This document shows, piece after piece, positions 1-64,000 of a DNA stretch of 64,000 nt. Where the stretch lies: assembly GCA_019359675.1 (NCBI GenBank), contig JAHHGX010000076.1, positions 1 to 64,000 of the forward strand, read 5' to 3'. The stretch is from Calothrix sp. FI2-JRJ7 (lineage in GTDB: Bacteria; Cyanobacteriota; Cyanobacteriia; Cyanobacteriales; Nostocaceae). Both the position numbers and the translations under genes were made by a program. Each line of letters opens with the position of its first letter. Positions within the stretch are counted from its first letter, which is position 1. A model generated the notes under the pieces. It did not search any database, was not told the origin of the DNA, and was given only the letters and a program-made list of their open reading frames with translations.

Positions 1-2
1 TT

Positions 3-113
3 AATAATAAATTGAAGCTACTCAAACGCTGCGGATTTGGGTTCAGAAATTTTAATAATTTTGAAATGCGAGCTTTGCTATTTTGGCATTTTCCCAAAAG
101 TTTAGCCCACTAA
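3..113 (+). mobile_element. IS transposase C-terminal tail (ISL3-like)
   Basis: Frame 3 from the window edge is open until TAA at 111-113. It reads NNKLKLLKRCGFGFRNFNN followed by FEMRALLFWHF. This resembles the C-terminal end of ISL3-type transposases (IKL-KR-x-G-F-NF-x-N-F-x-x-R-x-LL). Only 36 residues are visible, so the family call rests on this short match. The tail overlaps the 5' end of the next open frame, which suggests that the insertion beheaded that gene. Assigning the family properly needs the sequence left of the window. Confidence 0.5.
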
Positions 114-2245
114 CTACGGAAGAACCAGAATTTAGCAATGCTTTATTAGAATTAGAACGAGACAACGGCAAACCAGTTTGGCAAGATTTTAACCCACGTC
201 TTGACATTCGCACTGGTATGGCTAACGAGTATGGCATGGAATTGCAACGTGCTTATCGGCAATTTGAGAACAAAGAGCTACTTTCATATAAGCGCGCGCT
301 GGAAAATTCTTGCAAACAAGTGCAGGCAACATTAACCAATTTCTTAGACAATACCATTAATCGCTATGCGGATGCTAACAGAAGCGGTTTGCACGAAGCG
401 ATTATGTTATTAAATCGATTGACTTATTTATATTTAGAACTGCAAACCGATGAAGCGCGTGACCAATCTCATAATTTAGTCACAGAACTGCGTGCAGCCG
501 AAGCATTTTTTGATACAAAACTACAGGTAACAATCGATAACGAAGCCACTAAAAAGCTGCTTAACGAAGTTCTGTCTTTGAAATTACGACAACAACAATT
601 ACAAGATAACGTAACCGAAGGAAATCATCATGAACTACAGCAACTACAAACAATCTTAGAACAGCTAAGAACAGCCACCGATGAATATCAAAAAGCTGCA
701 AATGCAGAAATTGAATCTGCCAACCAAATTCGCGCTCAAGCACGTAAGCAAGCTCGTGAAGAAGCTGAAGCAGCAATTATTGCCACTCAAAAGCATCTCA
801 CTGCCACTGAAAATCAACTTGAAACAACTACAGATAAACTAACCGAATTATTAGCTGAAGAAAGTCGTTTTCGTAACCAGCATTTAGTTATTTATCCTAT
901 ATTTTTTGCAGTTAGTTTACTAGGCTTGCTAATTCTCCTAGGAATTTTCAACCAATCTATACTGTGGGGATTACTACAAAAAATTGGCGAAAACTTAGTT
1001 AACTGTTTGATTTGGACAGCAGTCGCAATTTTAACATACTTAGGTATTGTTTGGCTGCAATACAGCACCAATATTCGCGACCGAATTCAAAAGACTCAGA
1101 AACAAATTAAACGACTAGAAAGCAATTTGAAAGCAACAGCCGTCGAATTACGTCGCAATTATAACGACCAATTAAAGTTAGAATATGACTTCTATGTCCA
1201 AAACCTTCGTATCGAAACGTTGAATTATTTAATAAAAACAGCTAAACAAAAAGCTGATACTTTACGTCAAACTCTTGATACCTTTTCTCAAATACATACT
1301 TATTTGGTTGAGCAACGTGAGCAAGCTACAACAAAATTTTCCGAAACCAGACTGGCAGTTGTAACAGATAAAGATATTGATGATTATTATCAAAAATTTA
1401 TCGAATCATCACCAACTAAAACATTCATTCATGAATGCGTTAGTCGTTCTCAGTCATGGAAAATGCCCGCGACCTTTCAAAATCAACTTACATCCTTTGC
1501 TCAGAAACAGTTCGAGCAATTGAGTAATTTGTCAATTGGAGAAGTTTTGCTTTCATCAGATTTAATGGCGCCAAATACTGCTCCATTACGTTTAAACCAG
1601 CTGAGTGATAGTGCTAATTTACTACTAAGACTTCAAGATATCGATGCCAACTTAAACCCAACTTCGCAACGCGAGACTACGCTTTGGGTTGGCGCCAAAG
1701 ACAAAGAAGAAATTCTTGGACTTTGCAGTCGTTCATACCGAACTTTGACAGCTTTAGTAGCTGAAGACGAGCAAAAATTGTGCATTTTGACTCGTTCATT
1801 AGGCTTTCCAGCTTATTTTCTCAGTCAAATTGAGTTTTATCGAGACTGCTATGAGCGCACGCAAAGCGAACAAAAAGAGTCAGATGAGCTAGACAATATA
1901 CCTGATTTAATACCAGATGAAATTGGTTCAAATCGGGAGTTGATATTTGCTTATTCTACCTTAATATTAGCAATTGCTTTAAATATAATATCTCAATCTC
2001 AAGGTAAATATAAATTCAAAGGTCAATCACTTGGTGAAGACCGAGAACAAATTGCCTTAGCTTTAGCGACTGAGTTTACCTTTCAAGAGTTATATGAGGA
2101 AATTCGAGAAAGTATAGAAGCGTTTGAGCATGATTTTGTTTACCAAAATGTACAAAAGTTAGGTGATACTTTGGCAAATGAGTTAACTCGTAATGAGCGT
2201 AAAGTATTAGATAATTTGAAGAAGGAGTATAATCCTTTGAATTAG
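83..2245 (+). CDS. Coiled-coil protein with two membrane segments, probably 5'-truncated
   Basis: I do not recognise this family. The protein has a helical, charged N-terminal part with coiled coil at about residues 170-260, rich in Gln, Glu and Ala. Two hydrophobic segments follow at about 268-288 and 303-326, then another coiled coil to about 420. The C-terminal half is soluble and carries no motif I can name. The only upstream start is TTG at 83 with no clear ribosome binding site, and the frame closes at 62-64. The first ATG in frame is at 218, but the residues before it look coding. Together with the transposase tail overlapping the 5' end, this suggests the native start was lost. Membrane anchoring is inferred from hydrophobicity. 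Confidence 0.6.
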   Translation: MAFSQKFSPLTTEEPEFSNALLELERDNGKPVWQDFNPRLDIRTGMANEYGMELQRAYRQFENKELLSYKRALENSCKQVQATLTNFLDNTINRYADANRSGLHEAIMLLNRLTYLYLELQTDEARDQSHNLVTELRAAEAFFDTKLQVTIDNEATKKLLNEVLSLKLRQQQLQDNVTEGNHHELQQLQTILEQLRTATDEYQKAANAEIESANQIRAQARKQAREEAEAAIIATQKHLTATENQLETTTDKLTELLAEESRFRNQHLVIYPIFFAVSLLGLLILLGIFNQSILWGLLQKIGENLVNCLIWTAVAILTYLGIVWLQYSTNIRDRIQKTQKQIKRLESNLKATAVELRRNYNDQLKLEYDFYVQNLRIETLNYLIKTAKQKADTLRQTLDTFSQIHTYLVEQREQATTKFSETRLAVVTDKDIDDYYQKFIESSPTKTFIHECVSRSQSWKMPATFQNQLTSFAQKQFEQLSNLSIGEVLLSSDLMAPNTAPLRLNQLSDSANLLLRLQDIDANLNPTSQRETTLWVGAKDKEEILGLCSRSYRTLTALVAEDEQKLCILTRSLGFPAYFLSQIEFYRDCYERTQSEQKESDELDNIPDLIPDEIGSNRELIFAYSTLILAIALNIISQSQGKYKFKGQSLGEDREQIALALATEFTFQELYEEIRESIEAFEHDFVYQNVQKLGDTLANELTRNERKVLDNLKKEYNPLN

Positions 2246-2257
2246 GGAAAATAAATA

Positions 2258-2281
2258 GGGACGGGCAGGGATGCCCATCCC
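2258..2281. repeat. Intergenic palindrome, GGGACGGGCAGGGATGCCC family
   Basis: The stem is built on GGGCAGGGATGCCC followed by ATCCCACAAG. The same sequence recurs at 20253-20279, in inverted orientation at 10412-10437, and in looser form near 56573-56630. This copy lies between two convergent genes, where it could act as a two-way transcription stop. Confidence 0.75.
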
Positions 2282-2378
2282 ACAAGAATGCAAGAGTGTA
2301 CAATAGTCTGGGAGCAATGCGAAAATATCTTGGATAATGAGAATCTAAGGAACGTTTCTTAGTTGTTCTTTACGATGT

Positions 2379-3242
2379 TTATTTTTGTAATTGTTCAACT
2401 TCTGCCACACTTAAGCCAGTAGTTTGACTAATCGTTTGTACATCTAAAACACCAAGCAGCGAACGTGCAATAGCAAGTGCTTTTTCTTTTGCTCCTTCTT
2501 CTCTACCTTGTTTTCGACCCTTAGCTTCACCGTCCTGTTGCGCTTTTAAAATTGCATTTTTGCTGTCGTGAAGAAACATTTCTCGTTTTTCTAGCACATC
2601 TAGCTCCTTTCTGGTTAATTTACTTTCTCTTGCAACTTCAAACGCATGATTTATTTCTGGAACTTCTTCCATAGTAGGTGGAACAGAGGTGAGTGTGTTT
2701 GCTGCTTTCAGGAAGTACAACCATTTATCTGATAACGTTTCTAATTCGGAAAGTTGTTTGTTGAATTTGGGTAACTCGACGAATACTAGTTCAATATCAT
2801 CGCTATAATCTGTTAAATCTTCTTTTTCTTTTAATCGGTAGCGAGATATAACTTTATTATTTCCTTCAAACATGTCAAAATCAGTAATAGTCAAGGCTAT
2901 CACTGGATTCAATAGTGTATAGTCCTCACCTAGTCTAAGCTGAATTGAAAAGGCTTTGGCTGCATTATATAGCACCCGCTTCTCGAAACCCAACACATTT
3001 AAAACCTGCATCTCAATAATAACGGTTTTATTTCCTGTGATACTTGCTTTTACGTCTAAGTATGAATCTTTCATACCCTTGATGCGTGGCGCCTGATAAG
3101 GGTCAATAATTTCTAAATCTAAAATAACAGGTTTCTCTTGATACAAAATTGCATTCAGAAAACCAATTAGAATATCTTTACTTTGTTTAGAACCAAAGAT
3201 TTTTTTAAAAGCAAAATCAGTTTTAGGATTTATAAAGGTCAC
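2379..3242 (-). CDS. Rpn family PD-(D/E)XK nuclease / transposase-like protein
   Basis: The N-terminal block INPKTDFAFKKIFGSKQSK and the core SYLDVKAS ... VIIEMQVLN match the Rpn/PDDEXK_2 family. These proteins are DNA endonucleases linked to RecA-independent recombination and to phage defence. The D of LDVKA and the E-x-Q of EMQ fit the PD-(D/E)XK active site. The C-terminal part, about residues 215-287, is charged and helical (KAQQDGEAKGRKQGREEGAKEK), as is usual in the family. I chose the GTG at 3242 because GGGAGG at 3249-3255 sits 6 nt upstream; the longer ATG at 3257 would overlap that site. The gene converges with the 720-residue frame and lies beside TA remnants. Confidence 0.8.
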   Translation of the reverse strand: MTFINPKTDFAFKKIFGSKQSKDILIGFLNAILYQEKPVILDLEIIDPYQAPRIKGMKDSYLDVKASITGNKTVIIEMQVLNVLGFEKRVLYNAAKAFSIQLRLGEDYTLLNPVIALTITDFDMFEGNNKVISRYRLKEKEDLTDYSDDIELVFVELPKFNKQLSELETLSDKWLYFLKAANTLTSVPPTMEEVPEINHAFEVARESKLTRKELDVLEKREMFLHDSKNAILKAQQDGEAKGRKQGREEGAKEKALAIARSLLGVLDVQTISQTTGLSVAEVEQLQK

Positions 3243-3315
3243 AATAAACCCTCCCAATTAGTATTCATTTAAGAACAATAGTATCATTTGTATGGGTTAT
3301 TGGCGCCAATAAATT

Positions 3316-3594
3316 TTAGGCAGTTTTCTTATCAGCGTCATTTTGAATATGACGACGTAATATAGAGTTTATAGTTGCTTTGTATTCTCCGCCCTGTGCT
3401 TCAAACCAAGCCATTACATCAGGGTCAAGCTGCACTAAATTCTTTGCTTGAGAGACAGGAATCGTTAACATAGCCTTATTAAAAAATTCATCTGTCAATG
3501 GTGGAATGTCATCATAGTTAATATCATCATCAGACATTGACTCTAATGCTTCCCAATTAGTACGAGAGGTACTCTTCAAATTTTTGTCGTTCAT
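3316..3594 (-). CDS. brnA: BrnA family antitoxin
   Basis: This 92-residue protein has the BrnA layout. A variable acidic N-terminus is followed by a ribbon-helix-helix segment, PVSQAKNLVQLDPDVMAWFE and then GGEYKATINSILRRHI. BrnA binds DNA as a dimer, neutralises the RNase BrnT and autorepresses the operon. The partner directly upstream (3598-3761) is broken, so this is an antitoxin without its own functional toxin here. It could act as a repressor or neutralise a BrnT elsewhere; that is inference. Confidence 0.8.
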   Translation of the reverse strand: MNDKNLKSTSRTNWEALESMSDDDINYDDIPPLTDEFFNKAMLTIPVSQAKNLVQLDPDVMAWFEAQGGEYKATINSILRRHIQNDADKKTA

Positions 3595-3597
3595 ATC

Positions 3598-3761
3598 GAT
3601 TTGCCTGTCTTCACCGTAGTCAAAACGGTCATCTAACTTAGATACTTCAAGCCCGGATAGTTAGCATAGAACCGTCAAACATCTGAGGAACGTCCGCTCT
3701 CGTCAATTTTGTGTTTACGAATGTTTTCGAGGTTTTTGGCTTCGTCCCACTCAAAAACCAT
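3598..3761 (-). pseudogene. brnT: Decayed brnT toxin remnant
   Basis: From ATG at 3761 the reverse strand reads MVFEWDEAKNLENIRKHKID, a standard BrnT N-terminus. The frame then hits TGA. The expected continuation appears in other frames: PQMFDGSMLT, then LDDRFDYGEDRQID running into the brnA start. The C-terminal half of BrnT is missing. At least two frameshifts plus a truncation make this a pseudogene. The DYGEDR block corresponds to the conserved DYGE(E/D)R of the family. Confidence 0.75.
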
Positions 3762-3866
3762 GAAGATTTAGGAAGGTAGTTGCAAGTTTATAGTTATTAT
3801 CGCTCTTGAAGGGTGAATTTGGCGATAAAATATAAATTGACGTACTACTTTTAAATGGCGCCACCT

Positions 3867-4028
3867 ATGACTCGCGCATTTACGGCAATTGTGTATTGGG
3901 AAGAAGATGTTTATGTTGCTAAGTGTCCAGAAGTGGGGACAGCTAGTCAAGGTGAAACGGTTGAGGAAGCAATTGCTAATCTTAAGGAAGCCACCGAACT
4001 TTATTTAGAAGAATTTCCTTTGCGATAG
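3867..4028 (+). CDS. Short HicB-like antitoxin domain protein
   Basis: The 53-residue product reads MTRAFTAIVYWEEDVYVAKC followed by PEVGTASQGETVEEAIANLK. This is the compact HicB-like fold (partial RNase H-like) common in cyanobacteria. HicB normally neutralises the double-stranded-RNA-binding RNase HicA. I see no hicA on either side, so this is a solitary antitoxin or a regulator. An in-frame ATG at 3855 lies 12 nt upstream, but it would add MAPP, which the family lacks. The gene overlaps a spurious reverse-strand frame. Confidence 0.8.
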   Translation: MTRAFTAIVYWEEDVYVAKCPEVGTASQGETVEEAIANLKEATELYLEEFPLR

Positions 4029-4093
4029 CGCAGACTCTTGATTGGCGCCACAATTGAAATGGGTATCTTTCCTAATGTGGAGGGGTTCATCAA

Positions 4094-4201
4094 ATGAAAT
4101 CAAATTTTGAAGCAATGTCTGACAAAGAACTGCTTGAGTACGTTCAATACCATCCAGAAGATAAACAGGCGTTTCACTTTTATATGGATTCTAATAATTG
4201 A
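4094..4201 (+). pseudogene. DUF6887-like protein, truncated at a hairpin repeat
   Basis: The product is MKSNFEAMSDKELLEYVQYH then PEDKQAFHFYMDSNN, 35 residues. The N-terminus matches the small DUF6887 family, which in cyanobacteria is usually longer and paired with a DUF6888 gene. Here the frame stops at TGA inside the first bases of the G-rich hairpin (TGATCCCCCC), so the C-terminus has probably been cut off by arrival of that repeat. The family assignment is from memory of the N-terminal motif. Confidence 0.55.
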
Positions 4202-4541
4202 TCCCCCCAACCCCCCTTGGTAAGCAGGGCTGATTCATTCCCTAAAAAGCTTGAAAAATCAAGGGTTTCGCGCAATTTACAATTGGTTATTTTGCTACAA
4301 AGGCGCCGAGAAAATAGACAATCACACTTATAGTGATGTGTTTAAAAGTCTATTTTCGAGTTCCCTATACTGATGATTTTTCTAGCTAACCATCTTGACA
4401 AATCCTGTTTGAGAGGGAATGAAACAGCCCTGCCTTGGTAAGGGGGGCTTTAAGAGGTTTTTTCTTAGCCCCCTTTCTAGAAAAGGCTTTAAGAGGTTTT
4501 TTCTTAGCCCCCCCCGAACTCGCGGGGGGGTTGGGGGGGAT
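4200..4541. repeat. G-rich hairpin repeat carrying a nested insertion
   Basis: The outer arms are GATCCCCCCAACCCCCCTT on the left and GGGGGGTTGGGGGGGATC on the right. The right side also holds two tandem copies of CTTTAAGAGGTTTTTTCTTA. Simpler forms of the same hairpin occur at 33372-33634, 20209-20236 and 60791-60830. This copy separates a plus-strand gene from tldE on the minus strand. Its two ends lie in the stop codons (TGA of TGATCCCC) of both neighbours. Confidence 0.8.
4224..4433. mobile_element. 210-bp MITE-like element, copy 1
   Basis: The element starts with GCAGGGCTGATTCATTCCCT and ends with AGGGAATGAAACAGCCCTGC. These are inverted repeats of 20 bp with one mismatch. It is flanked by direct repeats CTTGGTAA at 4216-4223 and 4434-4441. 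The duplication could be 8-10 bp, because the element ends and the target share bases. There is no open frame that could encode a transposase, so it must move in trans. A second copy at 33396-33605 looks identical along its whole length. Confidence 0.85.
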
Positions 4542-5887
4542 CATAAAGTATAAGTAAAATTATCTACCAACATTCCCGGCGCCATATTACCCCCTAGTTG
4601 TCGCGAGTCATAAGTGCCCACTTCAGGAATAAATTCTTGGAAATTAGTAAAATCAACTAAATTTTCACCCCAAAATTTATACAGGGTCTCATCAAAACGC
4701 AAATTCTCGATAGGCGCCACAATTTCGCCATTTTCTACCCAAAAGCAAGCATAACGAGTCATTCCGGTAATACGACCAGTAGGTAAGTCACTCCAATTTA
4801 AATAGTGCAAATTAGATACATATAAACCTGTACCTAATTGGGTAAGAATATCATCGAAACTAAGATTTCCAGGACATATTTCTGGGGAACGTAACGACTC
4901 GTTACTATTGGCGCCGTTAGCTACTTTGTCATATTCTTTAGCAGTACGGGAATTTACAAGTGTCGAAGCCAAAGTGCCTTTTTCGATAACGTGTAGTTCA
5001 GGTGCTGCCATTTCACCTAGCTCATTAAATCGTGGTACTAAGCCAAGCTGAAAGTTTTCTTTAAGATTCAATAACGGAGAAAGTTGCTTTTCGCCACGCC
5101 ATAGTAAAGCTAAAGAACTATGTCCCTGTTGAATATCCGCTTCGCTAACTCCACCCCATGACAGCATTGATATTAAATCGGAAACTGCTGCAGGAGCAAA
5201 ATAGGTTCTATATTCTCCTCTTGGTAATTCTTTTACTGGATGCGCGAGCAATTTTAACTGTTTTTTCGCATCCTTTATTTTAGCAATATAACCATTCTCA
5301 TCCCATTTACTGCCTGCGTAAAACCCTTTTACTGCTTGTCCTTCCGAACTAAAAATAGAGTAGTCTAATGTAAACGAATCTGTAACAAACCAGTGTTTTT
5401 GTCCGCAGGAATCAGCATATCCCTTAATAACTATACCACCTGCATAAATACCTGTAAAATCTAATTCCGAAACAGGCGCCAATATAGTTGATACAACAGC
5501 ATCTAATTCTAATAGCTTACCAGTATTAACTTCGCTACTAGTATTATTCCCTGACGGCAAAACCAAATAAGGGTCAATTGGTAAATAAGGTAATTCTTCA
5601 CGCAATTCTAATAAAGCAGCATATGCAGTTTGCCAATCAATTTCCCAATTTCCCGTAAAGGGAAAGTGACGATAGCAAGTGCGCTGATTATCCATTAAAG
5701 TAAGTTGAACATAGCCATCAGCAACACTACCACTTTGGCGAACTTTTGCATTATTAAAACGAGTAAATTGACTGCGCTCACTGCTTAATTTAACAGTGAA
5801 TGCCTCGGTCTCTAATTTCTTAGCTATTAGTGTTTCAACTAACTTATTAAAGCTTGTTTCTAAAGTAGATAGTTCCGATATACTCAT
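4541..5887 (-). CDS. tldE: TldE/PmbA family protein, metalloprotease partner subunit
   Basis: This 448-residue protein matches the PmbA/TldE half of the TldD/TldE protease, which in other bacteria trims peptides such as microcin precursors and CcdA. TldE lacks the HExxxH motif and forms the heterodimer with TldD. Visible family features are the central GVSEADIQQGHSSLALLW region and the C-terminal block LGTGLYVSNLHYLNWSDLPT with GRITGMTRYACFWVENG. tldD lies upstream on the same strand with a palindrome between the two genes. The stop codon is formed from the edge of the G-rich hairpin. The native substrate in cyanobacteria is not shown by the sequence. Confidence 0.88.
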   Translation of the reverse strand: MSISELSTLETSFNKLVETLIAKKLETEAFTVKLSSERSQFTRFNNAKVRQSGSVADGYVQLTLMDNQRTCYRHFPFTGNWEIDWQTAYAALLELREELPYLPIDPYLVLPSGNNTSSEVNTGKLLELDAVVSTILAPVSELDFTGIYAGGIVIKGYADSCGQKHWFVTDSFTLDYSIFSSEGQAVKGFYAGSKWDENGYIAKIKDAKKQLKLLAHPVKELPRGEYRTYFAPAAVSDLISMLSWGGVSEADIQQGHSSLALLWRGEKQLSPLLNLKENFQLGLVPRFNELGEMAAPELHVIEKGTLASTLVNSRTAKEYDKVANGANSNESLRSPEICPGNLSFDDILTQLGTGLYVSNLHYLNWSDLPTGRITGMTRYACFWVENGEIVAPIENLRFDETLYKFWGENLVDFTNFQEFIPEVGTYDSRQLGGNMAPGMLVDNFTYTL

Positions 5888-5905
5888 GGGTTAATTTAAT
5901 TAGGA

Positions 5906-5969
5906 GTAGGGTGCGTGACGCTACCAATAATCTTAAAACGAAGCCAGCCATCCAGTAGCGTCACGCACC
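5906..5969. repeat. GGTGCGTGACGCTAC palindrome, copy 1
   Basis: Arms GGTGCGTGACGCTAC (5910-5924) and its exact complement (5955-5969) enclose a 30-nt loop. It sits between tldD and tldE. Related copies are at 10947-11007, 25371-25460, 30032-30090 and 30113-30171. Confidence 0.85.
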
Positions 5970-5990
5970 GGAGCGAGGCGCAAAGCGAAG

Positions 5991-7433
5991 TTATGTTCCT
6001 CCACCAAACACTTCAACCGAAGCAAACACACAAACAGGAGAACCATGTCCTACCCATATTGCCTGATTTGGTTCACCTTTGCCGCAAAATGGAGTGCCAT
6101 ACATTTCCCAAGTTGGGGCGCCACCTACCTTAACTAAACTTCCCCAAAATTCCGGAGTAGTCGCGCGATAGTTTGGATTACGAAGCGTTTTGGTTAATTT
6201 CCCGTTTTCAATGAGCTTGGCATACTCGCAACCAAACTGGAATTTATAGCGACGGTCGTCTATCGACCAAGAACGGTTCGATTCCATGTAAACGCCATGT
6301 TCGATATCTTTGATAACATCATCAAATGTACCTTCACCCGGTTCCAGATTCAAATTTGCCATGCGGTCAATTGCTGGACGGTTCCATGAACACGCACGCG
6401 CGCAAGCAACACCAGGAATACCTGCTCGTGCTTGACTTTCTAAACTGCCTACACCTCGTTGCAGTACTCCTTCCTTAATTAAATACTCCCGTGTAGCAAC
6501 GGCACCTGTATCATCAAAAGCGTAGCTAGCTATTTCACCTGGAACAGTTGGGTCAAAGGTGATATTCATCAACTTAGAACCATACACCAAATTACCAAAA
6601 TCGCTCTTCTTAACAAAACTACCACCTGCGTAGTTGCGCTCATCCCCCAATATTCTGTCAATTTCTAAAGGATGCCCAACACTTTCATGAATTTGTAACA
6701 TCATTTGGTCAGGCGCCAAAACCAAATTCGTGCGAATATCAGGACACTCTTCGGCTGTGAGTAATTCGATAGCTTCCTCACCAATACGCTGTACACGATG
6801 CCAAAGTCTATCATCTTGGAAACGTTCTAATCCACCTTGATATGTATGTGCTTGCCAACCGTTATTAGTACGCTGTTGAACTACTCCACTATCTTGAGCA
6901 GTTGTACCATAATACGTACTAATAAATAGAAATTTTTGATATACTTCCGAACCGTTACTGCTGACAAACCAAGTTTCTCGGTCGGTAGTTACTACTTCTG
7001 CAACAGTTTGAACTATTTTGTCGCTAACTTTGAGAGTTTTGCAAGTGCGGACAAGTATATCATTGATTTCGCCAGAACCAATTGCATCAAACGGCTGTGT
7101 ATAAGGAGAAACATATTCACCTACCACCTTTGGACGCGCAGTTGTCGCTGCAAATTTATATACCGACCATTGTTGTGCTGAACGAGCTTGTTTATATGCA
7201 GTTTCTGCCGCTAATTGTAAAGCATCATGTTGTAATGAATTTGTTGCAGCATAACCAATACAGCCATCAACTAAAACTTCAACCATTGCTCCAAGAGTGG
7301 TTGATTTGCCGTTGCGCTGTGGTATCCCATCACGAACATTCCGCGTAGCAGATGTATCTTTTACTGCTCTAATCCCAACCCAATCAGCGGCAATATCTAT
7401 ATTGTTTATTGCTTTTGTTAGCTCAATTAACAT
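5991..7433 (-). CDS. tldD: TldD family metalloprotease subunit
   Basis: The 480-residue protein carries the TldD zinc site HESVGH (HExxxH) at about residues 245-250, within LQIHESVGHPLEIDRILGDE. The C-terminal region holds the conserved CGYAK-like block FGCEYAKLIENGKL. It pairs with TldE downstream on the same strand to form an intracellular peptidase. The start ATG (MLIELTKAINNIDI) agrees with family length. Both genes are probably transcribed together, although the palindrome between them could alter the ratio of the products. Confidence 0.9.
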   Translation of the reverse strand: MLIELTKAINNIDIAADWVGIRAVKDTSATRNVRDGIPQRNGKSTTLGAMVEVLVDGCIGYAATNSLQHDALQLAAETAYKQARSAQQWSVYKFAATTARPKVVGEYVSPYTQPFDAIGSGEINDILVRTCKTLKVSDKIVQTVAEVVTTDRETWFVSSNGSEVYQKFLFISTYYGTTAQDSGVVQQRTNNGWQAHTYQGGLERFQDDRLWHRVQRIGEEAIELLTAEECPDIRTNLVLAPDQMMLQIHESVGHPLEIDRILGDERNYAGGSFVKKSDFGNLVYGSKLMNITFDPTVPGEIASYAFDDTGAVATREYLIKEGVLQRGVGSLESQARAGIPGVACARACSWNRPAIDRMANLNLEPGEGTFDDVIKDIEHGVYMESNRSWSIDDRRYKFQFGCEYAKLIENGKLTKTLRNPNYRATTPEFWGSLVKVGGAPTWEMYGTPFCGKGEPNQAIWVGHGSPVCVFASVEVFGGGT

Positions 7434-10349: not shown

Positions 10350-10365
10350 TGCGCTCGTACTAAGT

Positions 10366-55923: not shown

Positions 55924-55932
55924 TCACTTAAT

Positions 55933-56568: not shown

Positions 56569-56572
56569 ATGG

Positions 56573-56636: not shown

Positions 56637-56665
56637 ATCTATCTTACAAGGATGGTTAATTATGT

Positions 56666-57193: not shown

Positions 57194-57263
57194 AAACAAC
57201 CTGGTGATAGCTAATAATACTAATTGTCGAGCTTTGACTATCTTATTATGAGTGCGAAGATTT

Positions 57264-58709
57264 ATGAAGGATTCTGATTTAGATTATATGAAGAGCAAGG
57301 CTAGTAAGAAACTCAATTTTAGTACTAAGCTAGCTTACGGGGCCGGAGATTTGGGTCCAGCGATTACTGCGAATATCTCGGTTTTTTTCTTACTGGTTTT
57401 TTTTACTAACGTTGCGGGTATTCCGGCAGGGATGGCTGGCAGTATTTTGATGATAGGAAAAATTTGGGATGCTATAAACGACCCGTTTGTTGGATATTTG
57501 ACGGATAAGACGAAATCAAAGCGTTGGGGGCGCCGTTTACCTTGGCTGCTTTATGGTGCAATTCCGTTTGGAATATTTTTCTTTCTACAATGGATAGTAC
57601 CACGCTTTGGTAGTGGTGAGAATAATACTTGGGGTTTGTTTTGGTACTATGTGGCAATAGGGATATGTTCGCAGGTGTTTTACACGGTTGTGAATTTGCC
57701 ATATACAGCGATGACACCCGAACTGACTCAAGATTATGATGAGCGCACAGGCTTAAATAGTTATCGATTTGCGTTTTCGATTGGCGGTAGTATTTTCTCG
57801 CTAATATTGGCAAGAATTATTTTTGGCGCCGTTCCTGACCGTCAGCAGCAGTATCTTGTTTTAGCAGCGATATGTGGAGTGATTTCTGTAGCTTCTTTAT
57901 ATTGGTGTGTTTTTGGGACGCGCGAACGGGTTTTGGCTTTTGAAGCAAAGCGTATTCAAACCGAAGAAGAATCTGCTTTTTCAATAAAAGAGCAGCTAAC
58001 AGCAGTTTTTACTAATGTTCCTTTTTTATATGTAATTGGTATATATCTTTTTTCCTGGCTTGCCGTGCAAATCACTGCTAGCATTATTCCCTATTTCGTT
58101 GTTGAGTGTATGCGTTTAAAAGAGTCTGATGTACCAACGGTAATGATAGGGGTACAGGGTACTGCCTTACTAATGTTATTTGTATGGAGTGCTTTGAGTA
58201 AGCGTGTTGGTAAAAAAATCGTTTACTTTTCGGGAATGGCTTTGTGGATATTAGCAGCAGCAGGACTATATTTTTTACAGCCTGGTCAAATTGGGTTAAT
58301 GTACGTTTTGGCTGTAATGGCAGGGTTTGGTGTTTCCACAGCATATCTCGTTCCCTGGTCGATGATTCCTGATGTGATTGAACTTGATGAACTTCAAACG
58401 GGACAACGACGTGAGGGAATTTTCTATGGTTTTATGGTGCTGCTACAAAAATTTGGGTTAGCATTTGGTTTATTTGTTGTTGGTTTGTCACTCGAAGCGT
58501 CTGGTTTTAAAGCAGCAACTGCTGGAAGTGGCGCCTTACCAGTTCAACCAGAGTCAGCACTTCAAGCTATACGCATCGCGGTTGGTCCTCTACCATTGGT
58601 TTCATTGATTTTAGGTTTGGTTTTAACTTACTTCTACCCCATTACGCGCGAAATGCACGCCGAAATATTATTAAAGTTAAAACAGCGTCAAGAAGCAAAA
58701 GAGAATTAA
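57264..58709 (+). CDS. GPH family sugar:cation symporter
   Basis: The protein (481 residues) has about 12 membrane helices and the glycoside-pentoside-hexuronide signature near helix 2-3 (IWDAINDPFVGYLTDKTKSK RWGRR). The middle loop carries charged residues (EAKRIQTEEE). It probably imports a sugar or related solute with Na+ or H+. I prefer ATG 57264 over the GTG at 57252. It is followed 3 bp later by a methyltransferase gene. Confidence 0.87.
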   Translation: MKDSDLDYMKSKASKKLNFSTKLAYGAGDLGPAITANISVFFLLVFFTNVAGIPAGMAGSILMIGKIWDAINDPFVGYLTDKTKSKRWGRRLPWLLYGAIPFGIFFFLQWIVPRFGSGENNTWGLFWYYVAIGICSQVFYTVVNLPYTAMTPELTQDYDERTGLNSYRFAFSIGGSIFSLILARIIFGAVPDRQQQYLVLAAICGVISVASLYWCVFGTRERVLAFEAKRIQTEEESAFSIKEQLTAVFTNVPFLYVIGIYLFSWLAVQITASIIPYFVVECMRLKESDVPTVMIGVQGTALLMLFVWSALSKRVGKKIVYFSGMALWILAAAGLYFLQPGQIGLMYVLAVMAGFGVSTAYLVPWSMIPDVIELDELQTGQRREGIFYGFMVLLQKFGLAFGLFVVGLSLEASGFKAATAGSGALPVQPESALQAIRIAVGPLPLVSLILGLVLTYFYPITREMHAEILLKLKQRQEAKEN

Positions 58710-58712
58710 AAT

Positions 58713-59309
58713 ATGTCAAACCCAGAATATTGGGAACAAAAGTACCAAGAGCAAAATACTCGTTGGGATATTGGACAAGCGGCACCACCTTTTGTTAGTC
58801 TTTTATCTTCAGGTTCGGCGCCTTTACCTGGGCGTATAGCAGTACTAGGATGCGGACGTGGGTATGATGCGGTACTATTTGCCAAACATGGTTTTGAAGT
58901 GATTGGGTTTGACTTTGCGACTTCCGCAATTGTGGAAGCGGAAAAACTCGCGAAGTCAGCAAATTGTGACATTAAGTTTTTACAGCGTGATATTTTTGAT
59001 TTACCTAAAGATTTTATAGGTTATTTTGACTATATTCTTGAACATACTTGTTTTTGTGCGATTGATATAGAACGGCGCCTTTCTTATGTAGAAGTTGCAA
59101 GTTCCATACTTAAACCACATGGTCAAGTAATTGGGTTATTTTTTACACATAATCGTCCTGGTGGCCCTCCATTTGGCGCCACTCCAGAGGAAATAAGGGA
59201 ATATTTCCAGGATAATTTTAAGATTCATTATTTAAATCCAGTTGCGAACTCAGTCCCATCGCGTCAAGGAGAAGAGCATTTAGGGCTATTTGAGTTAATC
59301 GGTAAGTGA
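58713..59309 (+). CDS. SAM-dependent methyltransferase (TPMT-like)
   Basis: A 198-residue class I methyltransferase: WDIGQAAPPFVSLLSSG matches the thiopurine methyltransferase-like start (W-D-x-G-x-x-x-P), motif I is AVLGCGRGYDAVLFAKHG, and motif II region VIGFDFATSAI. The family methylates thiols, halides or tellurite in different organisms. It is closely linked to the GPH transporter. Confidence 0.88.
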   Translation: MSNPEYWEQKYQEQNTRWDIGQAAPPFVSLLSSGSAPLPGRIAVLGCGRGYDAVLFAKHGFEVIGFDFATSAIVEAEKLAKSANCDIKFLQRDIFDLPKDFIGYFDYILEHTCFCAIDIERRLSYVEVASSILKPHGQVIGLFFTHNRPGGPPFGATPEEIREYFQDNFKIHYLNPVANSVPSRQGEEHLGLFELIGK

Positions 59310-59436
59310 CGGTTATCTCTCTACTGGAAGCGGAAAAATACACCTTTCCTGACATGGAGCAAATTGCAATAATACTTAATATTCTAGAATACTAGAATCA
59401 TAAATATTAAGTAGCAAAAGCGCTCTCATACAATAG

Positions 59437-60123
59437 ATGGCTACTCCCAGTTTAGACGAACTATCTGCCCAGCTAGAAAGTTCTAGCTTACGTGACCGCA
59501 TGGTTGCCCTTGCAAATTTGCGCGATGTTTCTGCTGAGGAAGCAGTACCCTTGATTAAGAAGGTGTTGAATGATGAATCGCTGCAAATTCGAGCGATGGC
59601 AGTTTTTGCACTTGGTATCAAGCAAACTGCTGAATCGTATCCAATTTTGGTGAATATCGTTGAAAACGACCCTGACTATAGTATTCGCGCTGATGCGGCA
59701 GGCGCCTTGGGATACTTAGAAGACAAACGCGCGTTTGAAGTGTTGGTACGGGTGTTTTATGAAGAGACTAATTGGTTAGTGAGATTTAGCGCTGCGGTAG
59801 CATTGGGTAATTTAAAAGACCCACGGGCACGTGAAACATTAATTAGCGCGTTAGATGGGCCAGAAGTAGTATTGCAACAAGCGGCAATTGCTGCGCTTGG
59901 TGAAATTAAAGATGTAAGTGCAGTAGATGAAATACTTCGCTTTGCTCAAGCTGAAGATTGGTTAGTGCGTCAACGACTAGCAGAAGCTTTAGGAAATCTT
60001 CCTAGCCCAAAAAGCGTTTCAGCATTAAAATATCTTGAAAAAGACAGTCATTATCACGTTTCTGAGTCTGCTAAAATTTCTTTAAAACGCCTAGAAGAAG
60101 CAGGTTATCAAGGAAGAGTGTAA
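59437..60123 (+). CDS. HEAT-repeat protein, NblB / PBS lyase type
   Basis: Six or seven HEAT-like repeats of about 31 residues (LVRFSAAVALGNLKDPRARE, VLQQAAIAALGEIKDVSAVD). This matches the PBS-lyase HEAT-like group, including NblB, which takes part in phycobilisome turnover. It precedes the CpcS gene, which supports a phycobilisome link. I saw no catalytic motif, so it may act as an adaptor. Confidence 0.85.
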   Translation: MATPSLDELSAQLESSSLRDRMVALANLRDVSAEEAVPLIKKVLNDESLQIRAMAVFALGIKQTAESYPILVNIVENDPDYSIRADAAGALGYLEDKRAFEVLVRVFYEETNWLVRFSAAVALGNLKDPRARETLISALDGPEVVLQQAAIAALGEIKDVSAVDEILRFAQAEDWLVRQRLAEALGNLPSPKSVSALKYLEKDSHYHVSESAKISLKRLEEAGYQGRV

Positions 60124-60237
60124 ATATGCCCCGTTGTAAGCACTTCAGTGCTTTCCCCATAAGGACTGAAGTTTTTACTACTAAAGTCCTTAATGCGAAC
60201 GAAATACGAACATGATTTAATTAGAGCGTCATCAACA

Positions 60238-60789
60238 ATGAATATTCAAGACTTTTTTGAATTAAGTGCCGGAAAATGGTTTGCCCATCGTACTGTTCAG
60301 GACTTAGGCGCCAATAAAGCAAACGAAGCTAAATCAGAAATTGTTATAGAAAAATTACCAGCAACTCACCCTGATGTAGTGAAACTTTGCGAAGTTTTGC
60401 AGGTAAACTCCAATTCCTCTGTTGTTGCAGCTAAGGTTAATTGGAATGATACAACTAAACTAAATCAAAAAAACGTAGGTACAACAGTTTTAGTTTTAGT
60501 CCCTGGCAATAGTCCTGATGAAGGTAAATTATTACGTCAGGTTAGCAACGAAGATAAACCATCGCTAGGTCAATATAAATTAGGTGAAGATGAAGCATTA
60601 TCGCTATCGTTTGAATCTGGCACAACTTCTTATGAAGAACGTTTGTGGTTTGCCAGCGATAATCTAAGAATGCGCGTTAATGTCATTAAGCAAGCAGGTG
60701 GTGTAAATACTACTTCTTTCACTACCGAAATACGTATGGGTGTTCCTCCTGCTAAAGAATCTCAAGCTGCAAGTTCAACATCTAGTTAA
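60238..60789 (+). CDS. cpcS: CpcS/CpeS-type phycobiliprotein lyase
   Basis: The 183-residue lipocalin-fold protein starts MNIQDFFELSAGKWFAHRTV and ends SFTTEIRMGVPPAKES, with YEERLWFASDNLRMRVNVIK in between. CpcS/CpeS lyases attach phycocyanobilin to Cys82-type sites on phycobiliproteins. I chose ATG 60238; the earlier frame start is non-conserved. It follows the HEAT protein on the same strand. Confidence 0.88.
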   Translation: MNIQDFFELSAGKWFAHRTVQDLGANKANEAKSEIVIEKLPATHPDVVKLCEVLQVNSNSSVVAAKVNWNDTTKLNQKNVGTTVLVLVPGNSPDEGKLLRQVSNEDKPSLGQYKLGEDEALSLSFESGTTSYEERLWFASDNLRMRVNVIKQAGGVNTTSFTTEIRMGVPPAKESQAASSTSS

Positions 60790-60790
60790 A

Positions 60791-60830
60791 GATGATCCCC
60801 CCAACCCCCTTTACTAAGGGGGGCTAAAAA
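60791..60830. repeat. Uninterrupted G-rich hairpin
   Basis: GATCCCCCCAACCCCCTTTA then CTAAGGGGGG. This is the empty form of the site that carries the MITE at 4.2 and 33.4 kb. It lies between convergent cpcS and a DUF4058 gene. Confidence 0.75.
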
Positions 60831-60845
60831 TATCTTTATTTCCCC

Positions 60846-61625
60846 TTACCTTAAACCTTGCTGTTGCAACAAATTCGCTGCCCAAACTGCATCAGTTTTA
60901 GATAATTTCGGCGCCGGGTCGCTAGTATAATCTATTGCTAGATAAAAACCTGCTCTGTCATAGATTTGATTTATTAATAATTGTAAATCTAATAAAGGTT
61001 CATTATCACCCATGCGTAAAGGTAATGGAAATTTAGGAATAGCTTCTTGGAGTTCAAAAGGGTATAATTCAGCTTTAGGACGGTAATTACTACGACTAAC
61101 TAAAATGCGATAGCTACTAGGAATCTCTTTACCACTTATTGGCATTGGTTTTCCACTTCTTAACAAGTCAATCTCAACAAGATGAGTTGCACTACCTAAG
61201 ATTTTCTGACGTTTGTTTTCATATGCATTTCGTCCTTCTTTAGAAAGTTTATTTTTTGGTGAAAGAAGCTCAATAACAGTAATCACCTCACCAGTTCCTA
61301 CTTCCCTAACTTCTAAATATCCCTCCATTACTTCTTCAGGTATAGGAATATTTACATTTATAGGTTTATTTAACGGTTCAGCAACTGCTACATTTAAGTT
61401 TGTATCAGTATCAGATTTTGAGTTAATTACTAAAACGTCTGGAATCCCTACTGATAAAGATTCTTCATTTACTTGATAAACTCGCTTTTCAATGGCAACT
61501 CGATATTTAGGTAGTACTTGTGGGGAAATAGCATCAGAGATTGCCACTACTAAACGGCTGTGAACTTCTGGCCACAAGTCACTATTCTCAAGATAAGGAT
61601 TCATTCCAGGGAATGGAGAAACCAT
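60846..61625 (-). CDS. DUF4058 family protein, copy 1
   Basis: A 259-residue protein starting MVSPFPGMNPYLENSDLWPE. Conserved blocks are VEIDLLRSGKPMPI, YRILVSRSNYRPKAELYPFE and VITVIELLSPKNK. The last, I-E-x-L-S-P-x-N-K, resembles a PD-(D/E)XK-type core, but catalysis is not shown. DUF4058 proteins are common in cyanobacteria; the function is unknown. It is the most diverged of three tandem copies. Confidence 0.88.
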   Translation of the reverse strand: MVSPFPGMNPYLENSDLWPEVHSRLVVAISDAISPQVLPKYRVAIEKRVYQVNEESLSVGIPDVLVINSKSDTDTNLNVAVAEPLNKPINVNIPIPEEVMEGYLEVREVGTGEVITVIELLSPKNKLSKEGRNAYENKRQKILGSATHLVEIDLLRSGKPMPISGKEIPSSYRILVSRSNYRPKAELYPFELQEAIPKFPLPLRMGDNEPLLDLQLLINQIYDRAGFYLAIDYTSDPAPKLSKTDAVWAANLLQQQGLR

Positions 61626-61667
61626 AAGTCTTTATTTTAAATTTTTCTTAAATCAATTGTAATTTAA

Positions 61668-62456
61668 TCAGCGTAATCCTTGCTGCCGTAATAAATTATC
61701 TGCCCAAGTTTCATCTGCCTCAGATAATTCAGGTACTGCCTTGCGTGTATAATCTATTGCCATGTCTAAACCTGCTCGGTCATAAACTTCTTGTATTAAA
61801 GTTTGTAAATCTAGCAATGGTTCGGTATCACCTTGACGTAAAGGTAAAGAAAAAGTTGGTATTGGTTCAGTTAGTTCAAACGGGTATAATTCAGCTTTAG
61901 GACGGTAATTGCTACGACTTACCAAAATTCGGTAGCTACTGTTGATAAATCTACCTACTATTGGCATCGGTTTTCCACCTCGTAACAAGTCAATTTCGAC
62001 AAGATGAGTTTCGCTACTTAATACTTTTTGACGTTTGGTTTCGTAAGATTTTCGTCCATCTCCCGCGCGCTTGTTCTTTGGAGAGAGAATTTCTATTGTT
62101 GTCACAACTTCACCTGTTTCAACTTCTCGTACTTCTAGATACCCTTCTCTTTCTTCCTCTGGCATTGGAATTGTTACAGTTACGGGTTTAGCTTCCGGTG
62201 AAGCAACTGCTACAGCCAAAGCACGTGGGTCATTAGAATCAGTTTTGGAACGTGCTACAGACACATCCGGTATTCCAACTAAAACTGTTTCTTCTCCAAC
62301 CGTTTGATAGACACGCTTTTCTATAGCTACCCGATATTTAGGACGTAGATGAGGAACTAAGCTATAAGCCATGAGTGCAATTAACCCGTGATGGACTTCT
62401 GCCCAAAGGTCAGGGTTTTCGAGGTAGGGATTCATTCCCGGAAATGGAGAAAGCAT
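61668..62456 (-). CDS. DUF4058 family protein, copy 2
   Basis: A 262-residue copy (MLSPFPGMNPYLENPDLWAE), nearly identical to copy 3 in most blocks and differing mainly at residues about 80-95 and near the N-terminus. It shares its upstream and downstream sequence with copy 3, showing a recent tandem duplication. Confidence 0.9.
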   Translation of the reverse strand: MLSPFPGMNPYLENPDLWAEVHHGLIALMAYSLVPHLRPKYRVAIEKRVYQTVGEETVLVGIPDVSVARSKTDSNDPRALAVAVASPEAKPVTVTIPMPEEEREGYLEVREVETGEVVTTIEILSPKNKRAGDGRKSYETKRQKVLSSETHLVEIDLLRGGKPMPIVGRFINSSYRILVSRSNYRPKAELYPFELTEPIPTFSLPLRQGDTEPLLDLQTLIQEVYDRAGLDMAIDYTRKAVPELSEADETWADNLLRQQGLR

Positions 62457-62528
62457 ATGGTTACGCTGGATGAACGATATAAAATCACAGGCGCCATTTA
62501 AAATAATCGTAGCAGTTCTACTAAAATC

Positions 62529-62672
62529 TTAAAGACCCAACAGTCGTACAAATATGTTTGGTAACGGCAATACGATAAGTATTAGTAAAGCTATTGACAC
62601 AATTCCTAAAATATCGCGTTGATTATTAAGTTCAGTTACATCATTCAACGTAAAAATAAGGTACAGTTCGGT
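62529..62672 (-). pseudogene. Duplicated 3' fragment of the site-2 protease gene
   Basis: Sequence from 62529 matches the end of the M50 gene (63607 onward): TTAAAGACCCAACAGTCGTA against TTAAAGACCCAAAAGTCGTA, and so on for about 130 bases. It breaks off near 62650-62672. It was carried along with the DUF4058 duplication. Confidence 0.85.
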
Positions 62673-62745
62673 CTTTTTTTCTTAATAATCGTGCATGTGC
62701 AAGATATAAGTTAAGCAATGTTTTCTTAAATCAATTGTAATTTAA

Positions 62746-63534
62746 TCAGCGCAAACCTTGCTGGCGCAATAAATTATCTGCCCAAGTTTCATCAGCATCA
62801 GATAATTCAGGTATTGGCTTACGTGTATAATCTATCCTCATATCTAAACCTGCTCGGTGATAAAGCTCTTGTATTAAAGTTTGTAAATCTAATAATGGTT
62901 CGGTATCACCTTGACGTAAAGGTAAAGAAAAAGCTGGTATTGGTTCGGTTAGTTCAAACGGGTATAATTCAGCTTTAGGACGGTAATTGCTACGACTTAC
63001 CAAAATTCGGTAGCTACTGTTAATAAATCTACCCACCATTGGCATCGGTTTTCCACTTCGTAGCAAGTCAATTTCTACAAGATGAGTTTCGCTACTTAAT
63101 ACTTTTTGACGTTTGGTTTCGTAAGATTTTCGTCCATCTCCCGCGCGCTTGTTCTTTGGAGAGAGAATTTCTATTGTTGTTACAACTTCTGTTGTTTCAA
63201 CTTCTCGTACTTCCAAATACCCTTCTTTTTCTTCCTCTGGCATTGGAATTGTTACAGTTACAGGTAATCGTGGAGGTGAAGCTACTGCTACGGTCGAAGT
63301 AACTGGGTCATTAGAGTCAGTTTTGGAACGTCCCACAGACACATCTGGTATTCCGACTAAAACTGTTTCTTCTCCAGTAGTTTGATAAACACGCTTTTCT
63401 ATAGCCACGAGGTATTTAGGACGCAATTGAGGAACTAATTCATCAGCAATGAGTGTGATTAACCGATGATGGACTTCTGCCCAAAGGTCGGGGTTTTCTA
63501 GGTAGGGATTCATTCCCGGAAATGGAGAAAGCAT
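62746..63534 (-). CDS. DUF4058 family protein, copy 3
   Basis: A 262-residue member starting MLSPFPGMNPYLENPDLWAE, with VEIDLLRSGKPMPMVGRFIN and TTIEILSPKNKRAGDGRKSY. It lies directly downstream of the intact M50 gene on the same strand. It is probably the parent or sister of copy 2. Confidence 0.9.
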   Translation of the reverse strand: MLSPFPGMNPYLENPDLWAEVHHRLITLIADELVPQLRPKYLVAIEKRVYQTTGEETVLVGIPDVSVGRSKTDSNDPVTSTVAVASPPRLPVTVTIPMPEEEKEGYLEVREVETTEVVTTIEILSPKNKRAGDGRKSYETKRQKVLSSETHLVEIDLLRSGKPMPMVGRFINSSYRILVSRSNYRPKAELYPFELTEPIPAFSLPLRQGDTEPLLDLQTLIQELYHRAGLDMRIDYTRKPIPELSDADETWADNLLRQQGLR

Positions 63535-63606
63535 ATGAGTGGGTAAATAAAGAATGTTATTTTGACAGGCGCCATTTAAAACAATCGTACCAGCTTTACT
63601 AAATTC

Positions 63607-64000
63607 TTAAAGACCCAAAAGTCGTACAAAGATGTTTGGTAACGGCAAGACGATAAGTATTAGTAAAGCTATTGAAAGAATTCCTAAAATATCGCGTTGG
63701 TTATTAAGCTCTGTTACATCATTTAATGCTGGCTCGTCAATTAAAGGTACAAATATCAAAATGATTGCCCACAGTAAAAATCCTGGTTGTACCAATGCCA
63801 GTAATAACAGTAAGAAACGCGCGATTTGACCAATAATAATGGCGTTTTTTTGTCCAAACATGGCGTGGATAATATGACCACCATCAAGTTGACCTACTGG
63901 TACTAAATTTAATGCTGTTACTACTAAACCTAATAACCCAGCAAATGCAACTGGATGTAAATCGATAGCTGTTTTGGTAATTAATTGACTGCCTAAGACT
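63607..64000 (-). CDS. Site-2 protease family (M50) membrane metalloprotease, 3' part
   Basis: The frame enters from the right edge. Visible are ALNLVPVGQLDGGHIIHAMF, the N-x-x-P-x-x-x-LDGG motif that carries the third zinc ligand of M50, and three hydrophobic segments ending LVLPLPNIFVRLLGL. The HExxH motif would lie beyond the window. It cleaves membrane-bound substrates. The 5' part is not in the window. Confidence 0.85.
   Translation of the reverse strand, partial: VLGSQLITKTAIDLHPVAFAGLLGLVVTALNLVPVGQLDGGHIIHAMFGQKNAIIIGQIARFLLLLLALVQPGFLLWAIILIFVPLIDEPALNDVTELNNQRDILGILSIALLILIVLPLPNIFVRLLGL

What the first reader, a model, noticed from the sequence alone, without database searches (positions are those of the whole stretch)
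1..64000. GGCGCC is massively over-represented, as if it replaces HIP1
By eye I count about 112 GGCGCC sites, spread over genes and gaps, roughly one per 570 bp. From the AT-rich composition (my estimate, about 39% GC) only 3-4 are expected. Most cyanobacteria instead iterate GCGATCGC (HIP1), and I saw none. Sites occur in all reading frames. Long stretches lack it (1-1566, 47400-50070). This could be a lineage-specific highly iterated palindrome.
Basis: seen in the sequence. Interest (0 to 1): 0.75.

Follow-up and report, generated by a model that had tools for sequence, protein, structure and literature searches.

The report
Genus-wide GGCGCC palindrome replacing HIP1
One small group of filament-forming cyanobacteria has scattered the six-letter DNA word GGCGCC about every 580 letters in place of the word its relatives use; the sites are kept over evolution, are probably methylated, and decay mainly at the methylated letter.

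Summary
The count is exact: 112 GGCGCC in the window (3.7 expected by composition, 16 by a third-order Markov model) and 14,889 in the 8.66 Mb genome against 8 for the reversed control CCGCGG. HIP1 is nearly absent (31). The reading is right but the motif is published: Elhai 2015 (PMC4390886) described GGCGCC as an alternate HIP in Calothrix PCC 7103. New here: (1) it marks a whole genus (7 of 7 genomes, 1,150-1,719 per Mb; the other 210 family genomes reach at most 111), against the published view that alternate HIPs are sporadic; (2) a probable GRCGYC C5-methyltransferase without its endonuclease is in 7 of 7, while an m5C methyltransferase found in 202 of 210 other family genomes (probably the HIP1 enzyme) was not found in these 7; (3) sites are conserved (67% at 19% divergence, controls 20%); (4) they decay mostly by C-to-T at the central C, and that decayed fraction stays near 10% at every divergence, so decay is quickly undone. 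Whether selection or biased repair restores the sites is open.

The parts
1567..63573. 112 GGCGCC sites (first 1567-1572, last 63568-63573), one per about 570 bp, in genes and gaps; full list of start positions printed
   Evidence: 108 of 112 align to at least one of six congeners, 102 to at least three; of these 102, 34 are GGCGCC in every aligned congener
4910..59706 (.). 24 sites that are GGCGCC in all of at least five aligned congeners: 4910, 6117, 10227, 25030, 29691, 32811, 33994, 34187, 36715, 36906, 40718, 40949, 41903, 44966, 45341, 50074, 50887, 51244, 52338, 56712, 57529, 58530, 59074, 59701
58781..58786 (.). decayed site: GGCACC here, GGCGCC in all five aligned congeners (C to T at the central C of the other strand)
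40610..40615 (.). flip-flop column: GGCACC here, GGTGCC in G062, GGCGCC in G060, G061 and G065, other words in G063 and G064: hits on both strands in different genomes
14327..14332 (.). GGCGCC private to this genome (AGAACC, CGAACC, TGCGCC or AGCACC in the six aligned congeners)
14928..14933 (.). GGCGCC private to this genome (GGTCCA, GGTCCC, GGCCCA or TTGCCT in the six aligned congeners)

Best explanation
GGCGCC is the genus-wide alternate HIP of the clade of Dulcicalothrix desertica PCC 7102 and Calothrix PCC 7103. It is most likely methylated as GGm5CGCC on both strands by a GRCGYC-specific C5-methyltransferase of the M.BsaHI/HindV kind that the genus ancestor already had and that has no endonuclease partner here. 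It took over when the clade lost the HIP1 methyltransferase and its GATC/CGATCG sites. Like GmCGATCGC it gives a G-m5C step on both strands. The sites are kept up actively: changes at the four outer bases and transversions at the two central ones are strongly suppressed, also at mostly synonymous positions; only C-to-T at the presumed methylated C leaks through, and those decayed sites are soon restored. I commit to selection on the methylated palindrome, as a mark read by a DNA-processing system (repair, recombination or chromosome handling), as the likeliest keeper. Shown: abundance, clade, gene content, conservation, decay spectrum. Inferred: methylation in vivo, the enzyme's specificity, the order of events, the keeper, the job.
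For: Abundance and clade. Methyltransferase in 7 of 7, monophyletic (100/99 support), at one conserved place beside a RuBisCO-like gene in 6 of 7. Homologues at 57-71% identity usually lie next to an RE_HindVP endonuclease in other genera (coordinates), a family that the BsaHI paper links to GRCGYC. RE_HindVP is in 43 of 210 other family genomes (fragments included), 0 of 7 here; its carriers have a median of 0.74 GGCGCC per Mb against 5.1 in genomes with neither gene, p = 7e-7, which supports the site assignment. The m5C methyltransferase common to HIP1 genomes: 202 of 210, 0 of 7 in the genus (cross-check). Decay: 62 of 82 one-base differences between two congeners are GGTGCC or GGCACC. Decayed fraction T/(W+T) 0.101, 0.099, 0.106 at mean divergence 0.06, 0.14, 0.19; control 0.104, 0.265, 0.409. 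Conservation 0.84, 0.76, 0.67 against 0.67, 0.33, 0.20. Non-central third codon positions, four close congeners: 31 of 699 changed against 282 of 2,102. Intergenic words kept, same congeners: 39 of 47 against 87 of 159.
Against: No methylation data for any of these strains were seen. The methyltransferase is not sufficient: 16 family genomes have it without the endonuclease gene and have at most 43 GGCGCC per Mb (some are fragments), and 8 family genomes in which the presumed HIP1 methyltransferase was not found still have 2,878-7,016 HIP1. In a simple fixation model, selection strong enough to restore GGTGCC so fast should also block its loss; both together need either young, still segregating losses or repair-driven restoration. 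On end branches counted losses (39) far exceed counted gains (2) in 52 kb of columns. Flanking bases are not slower-evolving. In the two distant congeners intergenic sites are hardly better kept than controls (6 of 12 against 15 of 38). The recognition-residue rule of the BsaHI paper fits only by one way of counting.
Confidence: 0.7

Rival explanations
1. Methylation-coupled biased repair (molecular drive), as in Elhai's G-meC-directed mismatch-repair ratchet: mutations that create a G-m5C step are kept, one-off sequences are turned into GGCGCC, and the abundance is a by-product without function.
For: Losses and restorations at the central C are both fast, which selection alone explains poorly. 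Decayed states in one column look independent: 11 pairs alike, 9 opposite. One-off words such as AGCGCC, CGCGCC and GCCGCC are scarcer than in HIP1 relatives (small counts, and those relatives' loci are a biased sample). M.BsaHI methylates the central C, which the model needs and Elhai listed as unknown. Divergence is somewhat higher more than 800 bp from a site (weak).
Against: A second methyltransferase copy, suggested by Elhai as perhaps critical, was not found in G060 and G064. Vsr, the known T:G repair family of this type, was not found in 7 of 7. Repair at the C cannot by itself explain suppressed change at the other positions.
Confidence: 0.33
2. The excess reflects composition, codon use (Gly-Ala) or another coding effect.
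For: 319 of 586 sites in ORFs read GGC-GCC.
Against: O/E about 20 or more in the 384 kb sample; reversed word 8 in the genome; sites also in the other frames and between genes; better kept than controls at third codon positions and, in close congeners, between genes; 0 sites in 150 kb of HIP1 Nostocales loci of 37.7% G+C.
Confidence: 0.02
3. A restriction-related effect: the words around GGCGCC are avoided because of present or past GRCGYC, GATC and GGCC restriction, and GGCGCC is a tolerated remnant.
For: GATC, GGCC, RCCGGY and GACGTC are strongly depleted; GRCGYC endonuclease carriers elsewhere in the family avoid GGCGCC.
Against: Avoidance cannot push one word 20-fold above expectation; GGCGCC is itself a GRCGYC site; no RE_HindVP gene found in the genus.
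Confidence: 0.04
4. A DNA-uptake or self-recognition tag for transformation or conjugation within the genus.
For: High, fairly even density, conservation, samples from smaller contigs about as dense as the chromosome. Loss of m5CGATCG methylation halved conjugation in Synechocystis (PMC6604393, passages including the abstract).
Against: No uptake data; known uptake tags (recalled) are neither palindromic nor methylation-linked; density outside ORFs is lower than inside.
Confidence: 0.15

Closest known systems
GGCGCC alternate HIP of Calothrix PCC 7103 and D253 (Elhai 2015, PMC4390886; seen: abstract, passages, sections 9, 13, 19, 21 and part 1 of 2 of section 18)
   Same: Same word, same density class, HIP1 and GATC/CGATCG sites lost, GRCGYC methyltransferase present; PCC 7103 is G061 here
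   Different: Shown here to be genus-wide rather than sporadic; second methyltransferase copy not found in two of seven; site conservation, C-to-T footprint and rapid restoration not reported in the parts seen
HIP1 (GCGATCGC) of most cyanobacteria
   Same: GC-rich palindrome at about one per kb, G-m5C on both strands (first C of HIP1 is m5C in Synechocystis 6803, passages of PMC6604393), methyltransferases that act on it
   Different: Other word, other methyltransferase; in the few HIP1 pairs at hand 0 of 9 one-off states are C-to-T at that C, against 62 of 82 for GGCGCC
M.BsaHI / HindV GRCGYC methyltransferases (Neely & Roberts 2008, PMC2413257; parts 1 and 2 of 4 seen)
   Same: Similar length, nearest solved relative M.HaeIII, gene next to RE_HindVP in other genera
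Very-short-patch (Vsr) repair skew around E. coli Dcm sites (recalled)
   Same: m5C deamination and T:G restoration shaping word abundance
   Different: No Vsr match in the genus; bases other than the methylated C are also protected

Membership tests
Highly iterated palindrome (alternate HIP, Elhai 2015) | GC-rich palindrome grossly over-represented, about 1,000-2,000 per Mb | tested here: met
   1,719 per Mb in this genome, 1,150-1,701 in the six congeners (their genome sizes are rounded)
Highly iterated palindrome (alternate HIP, Elhai 2015) | Found only where HIP1 is low or absent | tested here: met
   HIP1 31-163 per genome in 7 of 7
Highly iterated palindrome (alternate HIP, Elhai 2015) | A methyltransferase able to modify the word is present | tested here: inconclusive
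   probable GRCGYC-type gene in 7 of 7 by homology and gene neighbours elsewhere; activity not tested
Highly iterated palindrome (alternate HIP, Elhai 2015) | Alternate HIPs occur sporadically, not in clades (stated by Elhai, not a definition) | tested here: not met
   7 of 7 genomes of one genus; the other 210 family genomes have at most 111 per Mb
GRCGYC C5-methyltransferase (M.BsaHI/HindV) | C5-methyltransferase, closest among solved structures to M.HaeIII | tested here: met
   PF00145 match; best PDB match M.HaeIII
GRCGYC C5-methyltransferase (M.BsaHI/HindV) | Homologues paired with an RE_HindVP endonuclease | tested here: met
   coordinates: adjacent in most genomes that have both genes; not in this genus
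GRCGYC C5-methyltransferase (M.BsaHI/HindV) | Arg eleven and Gly/Ala nine residues before the TL motif | tested here: inconclusive
   29 of 29 homologues fit if the residues in between are counted (T-12 Arg, T-10 Gly/Ala); counted literally, T-9 is Ile or Val
GRCGYC C5-methyltransferase (M.BsaHI/HindV) | Methylates the central C of GRCGYC | not testable with these tools
   only the C-to-T footprint at that base speaks for it
GRCGYC restriction-modification system | RE_HindVP endonuclease gene | tested here: not met
   0 of 7 in the genus; 43 of 210 in the rest of the family, fragments included, 42 over the cut-off
Vsr very-short-patch repair | Vsr endonuclease gene (PF03852) | tested here: not met
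   0 of 7; 1 of 217 in the family
CGATCG (DmtC-type) HIP1 methyltransferase | Ortholog of the m5C enzyme common to HIP1 genomes | tested here: not met
   0 of 7, 202 of 210 elsewhere (at most 8 candidates per genome were scored there, but the fetched m5C proteins of the genus also give only partial 39-45% matches); that this protein is the CGATCG enzyme is inferred

The most novel reading that the evidence does not exclude
The genus carries a methylation-coupled, sequence-writing process: GGm5CGCC decays by deamination, but GGTGCC and other near misses are rewritten to GGCGCC far faster than neutral mutation allows, by a repair route that is not Vsr. HIPs would then be the visible product of a bacterial DNA-repair drive, and this genus a natural switch experiment from HIP1 to a second word.
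Probability: 0.3. Interest if true: 0.85.

Novelty: new member of a known kind. Interest (0 to 1): 0.55.

Why it matters
What HIP1 is for is an old open question. A whole genus that replaced HIP1 with another, probably methylated, palindrome and kept it through 19% sequence divergence shows that the job or process is not tied to one word and suggests that G-m5C on both strands is the common element. The decay-and-restore signature gives a direct test between selection and biased repair in named strains (PCC 7102, PCC 7103, PCC 7716).

Tried and rejected
Composition or coding bias: rejected. Long empty stretches as foreign DNA: not needed; their number is as expected and one site was lost in situ. 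Two methyltransferase copies as a requirement: not supported; further-branch copies were seen in G000, G061, G063 and G065 (one of six on a chromosome-size contig) and a truncated one in G062, none in G060 and G064 (one 33-position PF00145 fragment of G064 was not fetched). Vsr: not found. A mutation-rate gradient around sites: flat to 800 bp. Partner gene beside the methyltransferase: the conserved neighbours are a RuBisCO-like gene, a glycosyl-hydrolase-like gene and a 153-aa gene without Pfam match. Majority-rule gain and loss counts in three genomes (39 losses, 8 gains, 10 ambiguous) were judged biased and not used. HIP1 comparison: too few sites in loci already held (213 HIP1; 72 aligned pairs alike, 9 one-off, 58 farther apart); the attempt to get more failed. 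Defence-family scan of genes near the second-branch methyltransferases: nothing but a weak BrxP/DndC match in one neighbour. Paper searches for HIP1, GGCGCC, Calothrix, Dulcicalothrix and GRCGYC listed no paper on GGCGCC as an iterated palindrome other than Elhai 2015; only open-licence PMC papers are held, and one search was swamped by the word palindrome (8 of 36,291 listed).
Full report
OBSERVATION. In 384 kb of the same genome there are 683 (O/E 20-32), and GGCGCC is the most over-represented hexamer. The whole genome (8.66 Mb, 91 contigs) has 14,889, against 8 of the reversed word CCGCGG, and 31 HIP1. Sites lie in all frames and between genes. They are a little more evenly spaced than chance: 4.1% of gaps under 50 bp against 8.6% expected, variance/mean 0.77 in 2 kb bins.

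WHO CARRIES IT. In the family (217 genomes) 7 of 7 genomes of this genus have 7,475-20,380 GGCGCC; the other 210 have at most 1,053 (111 per Mb). HIP1 is 31-163 per genome in the genus; in the other 210 it is about 1,100-8,800 except in G182 (30), G194 (535), G191 (574) and G184 (990). A class-wide sample (388 genomes, this one included) has other high raw counts, mostly where the reversed word is frequent too; read by eye, the largest excess over the reversed word outside the genus is G448 (1,169 against 25). The window's genome is a seventh, unnamed one.

WHAT WAS KNOWN. Elhai 2015 (abstract, passages, sections 9, 13, 19, 21 and part 1 of 2 of section 18) described GGCGCC as an alternate HIP in Calothrix PCC 7103 and D253, noted two GRCGYC methyltransferases there, GATC depletion and a broken CGATCG methyltransferase gene, and proposed a ratchet by G-meC-directed mismatch repair. 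He argued that exceptional HIPs are sporadic and not in clades, and that a second methyltransferase may have been critical.

METHYLTRANSFERASES. All seven genomes carry a C5-methyltransferase of one branch ('0a': 79-99% identity). In G062 the full-length copy lies on a 16.8 kb contig with integrase-, DnaB- and DpdA-like genes, and a 97% identical piece lies at another contig's end. In the other six the gene lies beside a RuBisCO-like gene and, downstream, a GHL10/SLH gene (in G000 only a 172-aa ORF matches the latter). The branch is monophyletic with 100/99 support. Other branches (0b, 0c, 0d; about 60% identity) occur in G000, G061, G063 and G065. Neely & Roberts 2008 (parts 1 and 2 of 4; [quoted passage not shown] 29 of 29 homologues examined, 12 from the genus, fit if the residues in between are counted, not if the rule is read literally, so I treat this mark as inconclusive. 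Firmer is the neighbourhood: in other genera the homologue usually lies next to an RE_HindVP endonuclease (coordinates). That family is found in 43 of 210 other family genomes, fragments included, and in 0 of 7 here. Its carriers have a median of 0.74 GGCGCC per Mb (n = 43), genomes with neither gene 5.1 (n = 151; p = 7e-7), genomes with the methyltransferase alone 8.5 (n = 16, some fragments; maximum 43). The orphan enzyme alone therefore does not make a HIP. An m5C methyltransferase present in 5 of 5 HIP1 genomes examined is in 202 of 210 family genomes outside the genus and was found in 0 of 7 inside (only the best 8 candidates per genome are scored there, but the fetched m5C proteins of the genus also give only partial 39-45% matches). 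It is probably the DmtC/CGATCG enzyme (inferred). The 8 other genomes in which it was not found still have HIP1, so its loss alone does not remove HIP1 at once.

SITE CONSERVATION. Syntenic stretches of the six congeners were aligned (44, 51, 56). Five genomes form a near-star at 5-7% divergence; G063 is at about 14% and G064 at 18-20%. GGCGCC is kept in 0.84, 0.76 and 0.67 of comparisons at mean divergence 0.06, 0.14 and 0.19, GC-rich control words with central CG in 0.67, 0.33 and 0.20. Non-central third codon positions changed in 31 of 699 against 282 of 2,102 (four close congeners) and in 37 of 222 against 260 of 713 (two distant ones); intergenic words are kept in 39 of 47 against 87 of 159 (close) but 6 of 12 against 15 of 38 (distant, no clear difference). 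Flanking bases evolve at the normal rate to 800 bp; farther out divergence is somewhat higher (0.074 at 800-1,600 bp, 0.095 beyond, against 0.061 for shifted sites), on few bases.

DECAY AND RESTORATION. Between G060 and G061 (219 kb) 334 sites are shared and 112 are on one side only; of 82 one-base differences 62 are GGTGCC (32) or GGCACC (30). Transitions at the two central bases run near the control rate, other changes several-fold below. If such decay simply accumulated, the decayed fraction would rise with divergence; it does not: T/(W+T) is 0.101, 0.099, 0.106 (far/near 0.57-1.72, column bootstrap), while controls go 0.104, 0.265, 0.409 (far/near 3.2-4.9). 32 of 42 GGTGCC and 30 of 44 GGCACC are GGCGCC in the partner genome; in nine control contexts the like figure is 0-12%. 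When two genomes are decayed in one column the states are about as often opposite (9) as alike (11), as independent events would be. From the counts, non-synonymous over synonymous central transitions per opportunity are 0.24 at GGCGCC (16/699, 50/515) and 0.04 at controls (65/15,486, 779/7,790): the decayed states look young. Among five-way columns, end branches show 39 losses (32 central) and 2 gains (columns with more than two states are not counted); columns fixed in the five but absent from the outgroups show older gains by varied routes. This is the footprint expected of m5C deamination at the central C with prompt removal of the product.

MECHANISM. Methylation by the orphan GRCGYC-type enzyme, decay by deamination and active upkeep follow from the data with moderate to good confidence (0.70; I lowered it from 0.72 on rechecking the residue rule). 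The keeper is open. Selection explains the protection of all positions. Biased repair explains better why losses and restorations are both fast. Vsr was not found. Elhai's ratchet remains possible; two of his side arguments (sporadic occurrence, a needed second copy) are not borne out, and one gap he named (the methylated base of GRCGYC enzymes) is closed by the 2008 paper in favour of his model. HIP1 in Synechocystis is also methylated as G-m5C (PMC6604393, passages), so both words would put that step on both strands.

LIMITS. No methylation data; ORFs were called mechanically; the alignments cover one syntenic region of at most 260 kb (seven genomes) or 469 kb (two genomes); genome sizes of relatives are rounded by the tool; the HIP1 comparison is too small.

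Noticed in passing
window 1-64000 and 320 kb more of G000: Strong avoidance of GATC (O/E 0.10), GGCC (0.13) and RCCGGY (0.15), and zero counts in 384 kb of several six-base palindromes (CCATGG, CCGCGG, GAGCTC, GTCGAC and others).
   Followed up: partly
G194 (genus g49 of the family): Few HIP1 (535 in 10.7 Mb) although it has the presumed HIP1 methyltransferase; GGCGCC 326 against 9 reversed. It may have another alternate HIP.
   Followed up: no
G448 and G561 (other families of the class): Moderate GGCGCC excess over the reversed word (1,169 against 25; 3,074 against 165).
   Followed up: no
L126 / L099 (G062:C60, 16.8 kb): Contig with integrase-, DnaB- and DpdA-like genes that carries two GRCGYC-type methyltransferase genes, one of them truncated: perhaps a phage or plasmid protecting its DNA.
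   Followed up: partly
L097 (G000:C38:5000-16000) and L068 (G063:C3:330000-337400): Stretches around second-branch methyltransferases have about twice the usual GGCGCC density (3,636 and 3,378 per Mb) and hold pentapeptide-repeat genes.
   Followed up: no
window 33368-33619 and 4196-4447: A repeat of about 250 bp shared by these two places (98%) and found at other places in this and related genomes.
   Followed up: no
window 83-2245 (+): Large ORF (720 aa) with no Pfam family over the cut-off, only a weak DUF4407 match.
   Followed up: no
window 14327 and 14928: Two GGCGCC sites private to this genome, each several substitutions away from the congeners' words, both in the secretin-like gene 13304-15700.
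   Followed up: partly
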